Positions 2,676 to 38,203 of a stretch of 64,000 bases of DNA are shown here, piece after piece (position 1 is the stretch's first letter; the number at the start of each line of letters is the position of its first letter). The notes under the pieces were generated by a model that was not told the DNA's origin, did not search any database, and saw only the letters and a list, made by a program, of their open reading frames with translations. A program made the position numbers and the translations under genes. This DNA comes from Flavobacterium sp. GTDB lineage: Bacteria > Bacteroidota > Bacteroidia > Flavobacteriales > Flavobacteriaceae. The DNA is taken from contig JAIXSK010000012.1 in NCBI GenBank assembly GCA_027484725.1, positions 1-64,000 on the forward strand, given 5' to 3'.

Positions 2676-2861
2676 GGCGTTTAAAAAGATTAGGCGTATA
2701 CAGTTGTAAAAATAAAAATTTAATCTTCATGATGCCTATTTTTATTTTCAAAAGCCAACCATAAAAAAATGCTTACAATTTCTATTGAGTTCTGCCAAGT
2801 CTCAAGGCGCAGCCGCATCTTTAGCGCAGCGTTTCTCAAGGCGCAGCCGTGTCTTATAAGT

Positions 2862-3034: not shown

Positions 3035-3103
3035 CCGCCCGCGTGAGCGGTTGCAGCTAAGTGCCGCGCACTGCGAAAAACGCGACCCGCAGGGGCACGC
3101 CCA
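3035..3103 (-). repeat. intergenic repeat element B, copy 1 (gcgtgagcggttg...gacccgcaggggcacgccc)
   Basis: Near-identical to 13170-13235 and 38131-38203; termini are the reverse complement of element A termini. Confidence 0.85.
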
Positions 3104-3163: not shown

Positions 3164-3219
3164 AATTACGAATTACGAATTGCGAATTACGAATTACGAA
3201 TTGCGAATTACGAATTACG
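3164..3219 (+). repeat. 7-bp tandem repeat (AATTACG/AATTGCG)n
   Basis: Direct read: aattacg aattacg aattgcg aattacg aattacg aattgcg aattacg aattacg. Confidence 0.9.
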
Positions 3220-3334
3220 TTTCAAACTAAACTTCTTAAACTGTTAAACTTTGATCAACTTTCTCAAACCATCCCTTTTGTCTTAAAGCGCAGCCGTGTC
3301 TATAGTGCAACGTGTCTCAAGCCGCAACGCACCA

Positions 3335-7036: not shown

Positions 7037-7203
7037 AAGCGCAGCGTGTCTCAAGGCGCAGCCGTGTCTATAGTGCAACGTGTCTTAAGGCGCAGCCGTG
7101 TCTAAAGCGCAGCGTGTCTCAAGGCGCAGCCGTGTCTAAAGCACAGCGTGTCTTAAGGCGCAGCCGTGTCTATAGTGCAACGTGTCTAAAGCGCAGCGTG
7201 TCC
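7037..7203 (+). repeat. GTGTC monomer higher-order array (34-bp dimers)
   Basis: GTGTC starts at 7046, 7064, 7080, 7098, 7114, 7132, 7148, 7166, 7182, 7198: spacing 18/16 alternating, then 16. Confidence 0.92.
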
Positions 7204-12991: not shown

Positions 12992-13052
12992 GTTTGATGA
13001 ACGATTAACGATTAACGATTGAGGATTTTTGATTTTTGATTTTTGATTGTTT

Positions 13053-13110
13053 CGTGTCTGCAGCGCAGCGTGTCCAAAGGCGTAGCCGTGTCTGTAGCAA
13101 AGCGTGTCCC
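13053..13110 (+). repeat. GTGTC monomer cluster (about 5 degenerate monomers)
   Basis: cgtgtctgcagcgcagcgtgtccaaaggcgtagccgtgtctgtagcaaagcgtgtccc. Confidence 0.8.
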
Positions 13111-13169: not shown

Positions 13170-13235
13170 GCCCGCGTGAGCGGTTGGAGCTAAGTGCCGC
13201 GCACTGCGTAAAACGCGACCCGCAGGGGCACGCCC
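13170..13235 (-). repeat. intergenic repeat element B, copy 2
   Basis: cccgcgtgagcggttggagctaagtgccgcgcactgcgtaaaacgcgacccgcaggggcacgccc. Confidence 0.85.
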
Positions 13236-13398: not shown

Positions 13399-14019
13399 AT
13401 GGCAGAATTTATTAAAATTTACGAAGACAAACCCAGCGAAGCCGCAATCAAGAAAGTGGCTGAGGTGCTCAGAAATGGCGGTTTGGTGATTTATCCAACT
13501 GATACGGTTTATGGGCTGGGCTGTGATATTACCAACAGTCGCGCGCTGGAACGCATTGCCAAAATCAAAGGCATCAAGCTCGAGAAAGCCAATTTCTCGT
13601 TTGTGTGTTATGATTTGAGCAACTTATCTGATTATGTGCGCCAGATTGATACCTCGACTTTTAAGTTGCTCAAACGCGCTTTGCCCGGGCCATATACTTT
13701 TATTTTGCCGGGCAACAACAATTTGCCTAAAGAATTTAAAAAGAAAAGCACTGTGGGAATTCGTGTGCCGGATAACAACATTGCGCGCGAGATGGTGCGT
13801 GTTTTGGGCAACCCGATTGTCTCTACTTCGATCCATGATGACGATGAGGTTTTAGAATATTCAACCGATCCGGAACTTATTTTTGAAAAATGGCAAAATC
13901 GGGTTGATTTGGTCATTGATGGTGGTTATGGCGACAATATAGGTTCAACCATTATTGATTTGTCGGGCTATGAACCGGTACTGGTGCGCGAAGGAAAAGG
14001 CGAAGTGGATATTTTTTAA
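13399..14019 (+). CDS. YciO-type Sua5/YrdC family protein
   Basis: EVLRNGGLVIYPTDTVYGLGCDITNSRALERIAKIKG...LKRALPGPYTFILPG...STVGIRVPDN. Confidence 0.9.
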   Translation: MAEFIKIYEDKPSEAAIKKVAEVLRNGGLVIYPTDTVYGLGCDITNSRALERIAKIKGIKLEKANFSFVCYDLSNLSDYVRQIDTSTFKLLKRALPGPYTFILPGNNNLPKEFKKKSTVGIRVPDNNIAREMVRVLGNPIVSTSIHDDDEVLEYSTDPELIFEKWQNRVDLVIDGGYGDNIGSTIIDLSGYEPVLVREGKGEVDIF

Positions 14020-14396
14020 ACACGCTGCTCTGTAGACACGGCTGCGCCTTAGGACACGTTTCACTACGGACACGCTGTGCTATAGACACGGCTGCGCCTT
14101 AGGACACCTTACACTACAGACACGCTGGGCTATAGACACGGCTGCGCCTTAGGACACGTTACACTACGGACACGCTGGGCTATAGACACGGCTGCGCCTA
14201 AGGACACGTTACACTACAGACACGCTGCGCTACAGACACGGCTGCGCCTTAGGACACGTTACACTACAGACACGCTGCGCTATAGAACACGGCTGCGCCT
14301 TAGGACACGTTACACTACAGACACGCTGCGCTACAGACACGGCTGCGCCTTAGGACACGTTACACTACAGACACGCTGCGCTTTGGACACGCCCTG
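14018..14396 (-). repeat. 50-bp higher-order tandem array of the same GTGTC (GACAC on +) monomer
   Basis: GACAC starts at 14035, 14053, 14069, 14085, 14103, 14119, 14135, 14153, 14169, 14185, 14203, 14219, 14235, 14253, 14269, (degenerate 14285), 14304, 14320, 14336, 14354, 14370, 14386: spacing 18/16/16 repeating. Confidence 0.95.
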
Positions 14397-14468
14397 CGGG
14401 CTTAAGATTGGATTTATTGGGAATAAATCACTCTATTAAACTTCTTAGACTTTTTAACTTATAGACAT

Positions 14469-14501
14469 AAAAAAACGCTCAGTGTTTGCTGAGCGTTTTT
14501 G
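14469..14501 (-). terminator. rho-independent (bidirectional) terminator
   Basis: aaaaaaacgctcagtgtttgctgagcgtttttg: perfect stem with A and T tracts on either side. Confidence 0.9.
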
Positions 14502-14519: not shown

Positions 14520-15356
14520 TTACTTGGCCGGTTTTTTCATTTCTTTTTCGATCATTTCGTAGAACTCATCGATTTTTGGCATGACCACAATGCGGGTTCT
14601 GCGGTTTTTAGAGCGATTGTCCGCCGTGTTGTTGGCCACGAGCGGAATATATTCGCTACGACCGGCGGCAATGAGTTGTGCCGGATTTACTTTTAAATCT
14701 TTGGTCAGTACGCGCACAATGGCGGTGGCGCGTTTAACGCTCAAATCCCAGTTGTCAAGCAATACAGCGTTTCCGGTAAACGGAACGTTGTCTGTATGGC
14801 CTTCAACCATACACTCAAAAGTTGGTTTGTCATTGATGACTTTGGCTACTTTGGCGAGTACTTCTTTGGCGCGGTCGCTCACCATATAACTGCCACTTTT
14901 AAAGAGTAATTTATCGGCAATAGAGATGAATACTACGCCTTTTTCAACATTCACTTCAATGTCTGGGTCAGAAATACCCACAGAGCTTTTCAGGCTGGTG
15001 ACCAAAGCTAGAGTAACACTGTCTTTTTTGGTTAAAGCATCTTGCATTCTTGAAATTTTCAAGTCTTTTTCTTTGATGGTTTCTAATGCTTTTTCAATAT
15101 TTTGAGCTCCTTGATGCGTGAGTGTGGTCATGTTGCCGACGTTGTTGATCAAATCAGCATTGTTCTTTTTCAAGAAATCAACTTGGCTTGATAACGACTC
15201 TTTTTCGCTCAAACACATATTGAGTTTTACCGTGGTTGCGTTTAACAAATCTTGGCACTCTTTATTTTTTTGCTCGAGTTCGGCAATTTTCTTTTTGGTA
15301 CCACATGAAGTGGATAGTAAACCAAGAACGGACAGGGCTAAAATGATTCTCTTCAT
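14520..15356 (-). CDS. OmpA family lipoprotein with coiled-coil
   Basis: Lipobox LLSTSC; C-terminal VEGHTDNVPFTG...NWDLSVKRATAIVRVL...AAGRSEYIPLVANNTADNRSKNRRTRIVVMP. Confidence 0.93.
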   Translation of the reverse strand: MKRIILALSVLGLLSTSCGTKKKIAELEQKNKECQDLLNATTVKLNMCLSEKESLSSQVDFLKKNNADLINNVGNMTTLTHQGAQNIEKALETIKEKDLKISRMQDALTKKDSVTLALVTSLKSSVGISDPDIEVNVEKGVVFISIADKLLFKSGSYMVSDRAKEVLAKVAKVINDKPTFECMVEGHTDNVPFTGNAVLLDNWDLSVKRATAIVRVLTKDLKVNPAQLIAAGRSEYIPLVANNTADNRSKNRRTRIVVMPKIDEFYEMIEKEMKKPAK

Positions 15357-37837: not shown

Positions 37838-37982
37838 AAAGTTTAAGAGGGTTAAGAAGGTTTAAAAGGTATAAGAAGTTTAAGAAGGTTTAAGAAGTTT
37901 AAGAAGTTTGAGAAGTTTAAGAAGTTTAAGAAGTTTAAGAAGTTTAAGAAGTTTAAGAAGTTTGAGAAGTTTAAGAAGTTTA
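37838..37982 (+). repeat. 9-bp tandem repeat (GTTTAAGAA)n
   Basis: Direct read; more than 10 units with occasional GTTTGAGAA variants and degenerate left edge. Confidence 0.93.
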
Positions 37983-38130: not shown

Positions 38131-38203
38131 CAGACGCTCTGCGTGAGCGGTTGGAGCTAAGTGCCGTGCACTGCGTAAAACGCGACCCGCAGGGGCACGC
38201 CCA
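38131..38203 (-). repeat. intergenic repeat element B, copy 3
   Basis: gcgtgagcggttggagctaagtgccgtgcactgcgtaaaacgcgacccgcaggggcacgccc. Confidence 0.85.

What the first reader, a model, noticed from the sequence alone, without database searches (positions are those of the whole stretch)
14018..14396. Same monomer organised as a seven-fold 50-bp higher-order array in opposite orientation
GACAC starts repeat with 18/16/16 spacing, giving 50-bp units acacggctgcgccttagg-acacgttacactacag-acacgctgcgctatag. Monomers match the 7037-7203 array (reverse complement), but the higher-order unit is a trimer rather than a dimer, so the two arrays were amplified independently from the same monomer set. The units are highly homogenised (few differences, one 1-bp insertion near 14285), implying recent expansion. 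The array begins at the stop of the YciO gene and ends before a strong terminator. The logic resembles eukaryotic alpha-satellite higher-order repeats.
Basis: seen in the sequence. Interest (0 to 1): 0.66.

Follow-up and report, generated by a model that had tools for sequence, protein, structure and literature searches.

The report
Flavobacterium mini-hairpin satellite array
Between two Flavobacterium genes lies a real tandem array of 23 short DNA units, each with a tiny self-complementary core, in which a three-unit block has been copied seven times; it belongs to a family of such arrays scattered between genes in this and several related species, and its copy number differs sharply from that in the nearest sequenced relative.

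Summary
Units of the same type are 92% identical and units of different type 69%, so this is a true higher-order repeat. BLAST finds the family at 39 places in the same genome; it is almost wholly intergenic and lies patchily across Flavobacterium. All five arrays in this part of the window have an array or unit at the orthologous place in the sister species CYK-55, with other copy numbers: 3 units versus 23 here. The unexpected part is the unit itself. Read on the minus strand it is NNNA-stem-loop-stem'-GTGTC, with stems of 2, 3 or 4 bp that vary but stay complementary. The commonest core, GCGNAGC, is the known, extraordinarily stable GNA-loop DNA mini-hairpin. The genome lacks the Y1 transposase that moves classical REPs. 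Best reading: an intergenic minisatellite of TGTC-tagged mini-hairpins, close in design to CGTC-tagged REPs, growing and shrinking by replication slippage or recombination. The alpha-satellite analogy holds for organisation only. The single-strand hairpin step and any host function are inferred.

The parts
14020..14406 (-). Whole array, 23 units, C-(ABC)x7-D; given on the strand that reads stem-GNA loop-stem'-GTGTC
14020..14035 (-). First unit (type C, stem imperfect), directly after the yciO stop
14036..14085 (-). Higher-order block 1 (A 18 + B 16 + C 16 bp)
14086..14135 (-). Higher-order block 2
14136..14185 (-). Higher-order block 3
14186..14235 (-). Higher-order block 4
14236..14286 (-). 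Higher-order block 5 (51 bp, 1-bp insertion)
14287..14336 (-). Higher-order block 6
14337..14386 (-). Higher-order block 7
14387..14406 (-). Terminal unit D, stem GCCC/GGGC with GCA loop; a similar unit ends the CYK-55 array at the same site
7038..7202 (+). Second array, 10 units, upstream of guaB (IMP dehydrogenase); 5 units at the orthologous site in CYK-55
2805..2853 (+). Array of 3 units; more units at the orthologous site in CYK-55
3287..3316 (+). Array of 2 units near the dihydroorotate dehydrogenase gene; 4 units at the orthologous site in CYK-55
13062..13108 (+). Array of 3 units between the uvrD-like helicase gene and yciO; at least one unit at the orthologous site in CYK-55
13399..14019 (+). 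yciO-like gene (Sua5_yciO_yrdC); the array starts at its stop codon
   Evidence: PF01300 E 1.2e-48
14471..14500 (.). Terminator-like hairpin, T-rich on both strands, between the convergent genes
14520..15356 (-). OmpA-family gene, convergent with yciO
   Evidence: PF00691 E 1.6e-17

Best explanation
The array is a non-coding intergenic minisatellite built from TGTC-tagged mini-hairpin units. Each unit (minus strand) is NNNA, a 2-4 bp stem, a 3-4 nt loop ending in A (usually GNA), the complementary arm, then GTGTC. Shown here: tandem and higher-order structure; a dispersed intergenic family; orthologous positions kept between sister species while copy number turns over; stem arms that change together. 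Inferred: when this strand is single (lagging-strand replication, repair, uptake of DNA) each core folds into the mini-hairpin, which stalls or shortens the template and promotes slippage and unequal recombination, so blocks of units are duplicated and lost; the trimer block arose by duplication of three neighbouring units after or around the split from CYK-55. Complementarity is kept either because hairpin folding helps the units multiply, or because hairpin-templated copying (quasi-palindrome correction) mends one arm from the other. New sites are probably seeded as parts of larger composite repeat blocks. A benefit to the host is not needed; side effects on neighbouring transcripts are possible.
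For: Higher-order repeat C-(ABC)x7-D. 39 BLAST matches in the genome. 28 of 31 multi-unit arrays lie between ORFs in 1.2 Mb that is 92% ORF; orientation to genes is mixed. Arrays of 3 or more hairpin-tail units: 29 in the real sequence, 1 in the reversed control (three of the 29 look like chance). Neighbour units not chosen for complementarity: 25 of 31 16-mers have both pairs formed, shuffled arms 13.9 +/- 2.2, maximum 21 in 2000; stem types GC/GC, GT/AC, AC/GT, GGC/GCC, GCC/GGC, GGT/ACC, GCCC/GGGC, GCGC/GCGC. Unit length is bimodal, 16 or 18 bp with few 17, as expected if bases are added to both arms together. GCGNAGC is the published GNA mini-hairpin, Tm 78 C for GCGAAGC (PMC4686876). Same site in CYK-55: 3 units B-C-D; in C8_MAG none. 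No Y1 transposase in this genome.
Against: Nearest-neighbour folding of the whole array as DNA shows no excess structure over shuffles, z +3.0 and +1.8; these parameters may not credit GNA loops, but a folded state in the cell is not shown. Only about 60% of loops in this genome begin with G; ANA loops are common, and the published stability is for GNA. Many units are copies of each other, so the shuffle test overstates independent events. Polarity (gain here or loss in CYK-55) is not proven.
Confidence: 0.62

Rival explanations
1. The units are small members of the CGTC-tagged REP superfamily, moved in trans by a transposase; tandem growth is secondary.
For: The tag TGTC is a listed variant of CGTC (PMC3733652). 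All ten copies of a CGTC-REP-like element (TCATTCCGACGCAGGAGGAATC) found in the sampled DNA of this species and CYK-55 lie on the same strand just after such a unit or a decayed one. CGTC REPs have no known own transposase.
Against: CGTC REPs have 8-9 bp stems, 4-5 nt loops and mostly head-to-head dimers; these units have 2-4 bp stems, mostly 3-nt loops and head-to-tail tandems. No Y1_Tnp in this genome. No target-site duplication was looked for systematically.
Confidence: 0.2
2. The arrays act as RNA: hairpins in 3' or intercistronic transcripts that stabilise or end messages.
For: Arrays often lie directly after stop codons or before starts. RNA folding of the minus strand is somewhat better than shuffles, z -2.2.
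Against: Orientation to the flanking genes is mixed; the yciO-sense RNA shows no excess structure, z 0.6; no Rfam match near its threshold.
Confidence: 0.1
3. The arrays are binding sites for a nucleoid or segregation protein, as the alpha-satellite comparison would suggest.
For: Array positions are kept between sister species; GTGTC is the constant part.
Against: Patchy in the genus, 4 clear cases of 150 genomes at the search used; no fixed orientation; loop middle base free and arms covarying fit a folded strand better than a duplex site.
Confidence: 0.06
4. The 23-unit length is an assembly artefact.
For: Draft of 41 contigs; several family copies lie at contig ends; copy number in short-read assemblies is unsure.
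Against: The blocks are distinguishable by point differences and one insertion; related arrays are found in independent assemblies.
Confidence: 0.02

Closest known systems
CGTC-tagged REPs (Di Nocera 2013, PMC3733652; includes Neisseria dRS3, Rickettsia RPE-4/6)
   Same: Short intergenic hairpins with an unpaired CGTC/TGTC tag, heterogeneous stems and loops, no dedicated transposase; CGTC-REP-like elements sit next to these arrays.
   Different: Stems of 2-4 bp instead of 8-9; mostly 3-nt loops instead of 4-5; head-to-tail tandems with higher-order blocks instead of head-to-head dimers.
BrickBuilt minisatellite/MITE of Porphyromonas gingivalis (PMC4596501)
   Same: Bacteroidota, intergenic, spacerless tandem short units, about 19 sites, copy number varies by site and strain.
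   Different: 23-nt unit inside a MITE with leader, tail and terminal inverted repeats; here 16/18-nt hairpin units and no such ends found for the yciO array.
Prokaryotic satellites of Subirana and Messeguer (PMC6749651), e.g. Leptospira interrogans families
   Same: Non-coding tandem repeats dispersed in a genome.
   Different: That survey describes no higher-order trimer and no covarying hairpin core in the passages read; its Flavobacterium family is a 69-nt unit of F. psychrophilum.
GNA/GNNA-loop DNA mini-hairpins (Hirao, Yoshizawa; via PMC4686876)
   Same: The commonest core here, GCGNAGC, is exactly this structure; at least two G-C pairs.
   Different: Studied as oligonucleotides; many units here have ANA or TTTA loops or GT/AC stems.
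Primate alpha-satellite higher-order repeats
   Same: Diverged monomers, homogenised multi-monomer blocks.
   Different: Hundreds of bp instead of megabases; 16-18 bp units; no centromere function shown.

Membership tests
CGTC-tagged REP | CGTC tag (variants TGTC, CCTC), unpaired at one end | tested here: met
   GTGTC tail in nearly all units; variants listed in PMC3733652
CGTC-tagged REP | Stem of 8-9 bp | tested here: not met
   2, 3 or 4 bp
CGTC-tagged REP | Head-to-head dimers, head-to-tail rare | tested here: not met
   Head-to-tail tandems
GTAG-tagged REP moved by RAYT | Y1 transposase (RAYT) gene in the genome | tested here: not met
   PF01797 finds none in G000; it is found in 7 of 11 genomes searched
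GTAG-tagged REP moved by RAYT | GTAG at the foot of the hairpin | tested here: not met
   Only some units read GTAG there; CTAAG, TATAG, TAAAG and TCAAG are as common
BrickBuilt MITE | Leader and tail with terminal inverted repeats around the tandem units | tested here: inconclusive
   Some arrays share AT-rich left flanks and GCGTGAG..CACGC or ATTCC..GGAAT elements on the right; the yciO array shows neither
Prokaryotic satellite (Subirana definition) | At least four tandem repeats of 10-200 nt | tested here: met
   Seven 50-bp copies
Higher-order satellite repeat | Same-position monomers more alike across blocks than neighbours within a block | tested here: met
   92% against 69%
Higher-order satellite repeat | Centromere or segregation function | not testable with these tools
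   Needs experiments
CRISPR array | Unique spacers between repeats | tested here: not met
   No spacers
Rfam RNA families | Match above gathering score | tested here: not met
   Best 23.3 bits against 141

The most novel reading that the evidence does not exclude
A bacterial satellite family whose unit is selected, as DNA, for a minimal extraordinarily stable single-strand hairpin: folding on the lagging strand drives its own tandem expansion into higher-order blocks, so the sequence spreads without any transposase, and similar GCGNAGC tandems in unrelated lineages arose convergently for the same physical reason.
Probability: 0.25. Interest if true: 0.75.

Novelty: new variant of a known kind. 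Interest (0 to 1): 0.5.

Why it matters
If right, it gives a small, testable case of how bacterial satellites and their higher-order blocks arise: related species carry the same sites with 0, 3 or 23 units. It also links two separate topics, extraordinarily stable DNA mini-hairpins known from oligonucleotide chemistry and REP-like intergenic repeats, and offers a way in which a repeat could spread without a transposase. The copy-number differences could serve for strain typing.

Tried and rejected
RAYT/Y1 transposase as driver: absent from this genome. SbcCD loss as the condition for arrays: sbcD was found in 0 of 11 array-bearing and 4 of 8 other genomes, but only 25 of 150 genomes of the genus pass the cut-off, so 0 of 11 is not surprising; not supported. 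Global folding of the array as evidence for structure: no excess as DNA, none for the sense RNA, weak for the other strand. Rfam: nothing near threshold. A first mutual-information test on all tail-to-tail segments was polluted by chance segments and replaced by the anchored test. A conserved leader before all arrays: found for 11 of 31 only. Literature: no paper found with the unit sequence. Array upstream of pyrB as a conserved regulator: present only in the sister pair UBA7665/USDV, absent in 17 others including this genome.

Full report
Observation. The sequence at 14020-14391 is a 50-bp tandem repeat with 7.4 copies and 93% matches. Same-type units are on average 92% identical and different types 69%; whole blocks are 90-98% identical to each other. 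The three blocks nearest yciO carry more of the private differences in B and C. The array begins at the stop of a Sua5/YciO/YrdC-family gene and ends before a terminator-like hairpin; the next gene, OmpA-family, is convergent.

A dispersed family. BLAST with the array finds 39 matches in the 3.13-Mb genome, several near contig ends. In 1.2 Mb of this genome taken as stretches (chosen among contigs with matches, so somewhat enriched), 31 clusters of two or more units were found, 28 of them outside ORFs although ORFs cover 92% of the DNA; the other three overlap ORFs that may be spurious. Orientation to the neighbouring genes is mixed. Arrays of three or more hairpin-tail units number 29 in the real sequence and 1 in the reversed one.

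Relatives. A genome-wide scan places the family in Flavobacterium species and MAGs (CYK-55, UBA7665, PMG_257, C8_MAG_00003, USDV_maxbin.055, agri and others). Among 150 genomes of the genus, the tandem pattern with two mismatches clearly rings in four; shorter or more diverged arrays would be missed. On a PyrB tree of 19 genomes array carriers form several separate groups, needing at least two changes on well-supported branches. Similar GCGNAGC tandems in other settings occur in Pseudoalteromonas, a Nanoarchaeota MAG and a few others; common descent with these was not tested.

Turnover at fixed sites. CYK-55 is the sister species in hand (about 88% nucleotide identity around the window). All five arrays at 2.8, 3.3, 7.0, 13.1 and 14.0 kb have units at the orthologous place there, with other numbers and order. 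At yciO CYK-55 has three units, B-C-D; C8_MAG and more distant species have none. So the ABC block was amplified here, or lost there; the closeness of the blocks (90-98%) relative to flank divergence (about 7-12%) favours recent amplification or homogenisation here. The pyrB site shows the same kind of history elsewhere: a four-unit array shared by UBA7665 and USDV, and a short empty spacer in the 17 other genomes read.

The unit is a mini-hairpin. On the minus strand units read NNNA-stem-loop-stem'-GTGTC. Unit lengths are 16 or 18 bp, rarely 17: the longer form has one extra G on one arm and one extra C on the other. To test this without choosing units for complementarity, neighbours of exact anchor units were taken as they came. 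Of 31 distinct 16-bp neighbours 25 have both pairs formed; dealing the arms out anew gives 13.9 +/- 2.2, at most 21 in 2000 trials. Eight different complementary arm pairs occur, of 2, 3 and 4 bp. Related copies inflate the count, but the variety of stems does not depend on it. The commonest core is GCGNAGC. Hirao and colleagues report that GNA or GNNA loops closed by two or more G-C pairs make extraordinarily stable DNA mini-hairpins, GCGAAGC melting at 78 C (PMC4686876). Standard folding of the whole array does not favour these structures, so the single-strand fold rests on covariation and on the published oligonucleotides, not on the energy model.

What moves or multiplies it. No Y1 transposase is found in this genome, so classical RAYT-driven movement is unlikely now. 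A CGTC-REP-like element, TCATTCCGACGCAGGAGGAATC, was found ten times in the sampled DNA of the two species, every time just downstream of a unit or decayed unit on the same strand. With the TGTC tag this ties the arrays in design to CGTC-tagged REPs, for which no transposase is known (PMC3733652); stem length, loop length and arrangement differ, so I do not file them as members. The simplest mechanism is slippage and unequal recombination, helped by the hairpin; this is inference.

Verdict. Real, non-coding, a genuine if tiny higher-order satellite, with an unusual hairpin unit. The alpha-satellite comparison is fair for organisation and untested for function. Closest relatives in kind are CGTC-tagged REPs and the BrickBuilt minisatellite of Porphyromonas gingivalis (PMC4596501). 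I rate it a new variant of a known kind.

Noticed in passing
window 3041-3100, 13174-13233, 38141-38200: A second dispersed intergenic element, GCGTGAGCGGTTG..CCGCAGGGGCACGC, nearly identical in three places of the window, nine times in the 1.2 Mb sampled and four times in 400 kb of CYK-55.
   Followed up: partly
own contig C22 83702, 87822, 88060; C20 7167; C18 about 28136; CYK-55 C4 and C2: CGTC-REP-like element TCATTCCGACGCAGGAGGAATC, ten of ten copies just downstream of a mini-hairpin unit or a decayed one on the same strand.
   Followed up: partly
window 3164-3219, 13024-13048, 37839-37982: Simple tandem repeats with 7- and 9-bp periods (AATTACG, GATTTTT, AAGTTTAAG) that often lie just left of mini-hairpin arrays.
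   Followed up: no
L134, L147, L155, L156, L163, L165 (Pseudoalteromonas sp. MMG010): Many copies of a longer repeat holding two GCGNAGC cores next to CTCTTTGTG, with CACAAAGAG nearby; looks like an independent use of the same mini-hairpin.
   Followed up: no
L166, L171 (Nanoarchaeota MAG); L144 (Deltaproteobacteria MAG); L142 (Bacteroidaceae MAG): Tandem GCGNAGC-type units, some with other complementary stems such as GGCCGTAGGCC in L142.
   Followed up: no
L138 and L177, upstream of pyrB: Four-unit array shared one to one by two sister Flavobacterium MAGs, ending a few bases before the pyrB start; absent in 17 other genomes.
   Followed up: yes
L013 (own) and L174 (C8_MAG_00003), upstream of an RluA-like pseudouridine synthase gene: Array kept at the same place in a more distant species, with similar unit order, ending 2-3 bases before the start codon.
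   Followed up: partly
L141, L161 and L181 record titles: MAG records titled Bifidobacterium breve and Sphingobacterium thalpophilum carry Flavobacterium-like arrays and group with Flavobacterium by PyrB, so the titles look wrong.
   Followed up: no
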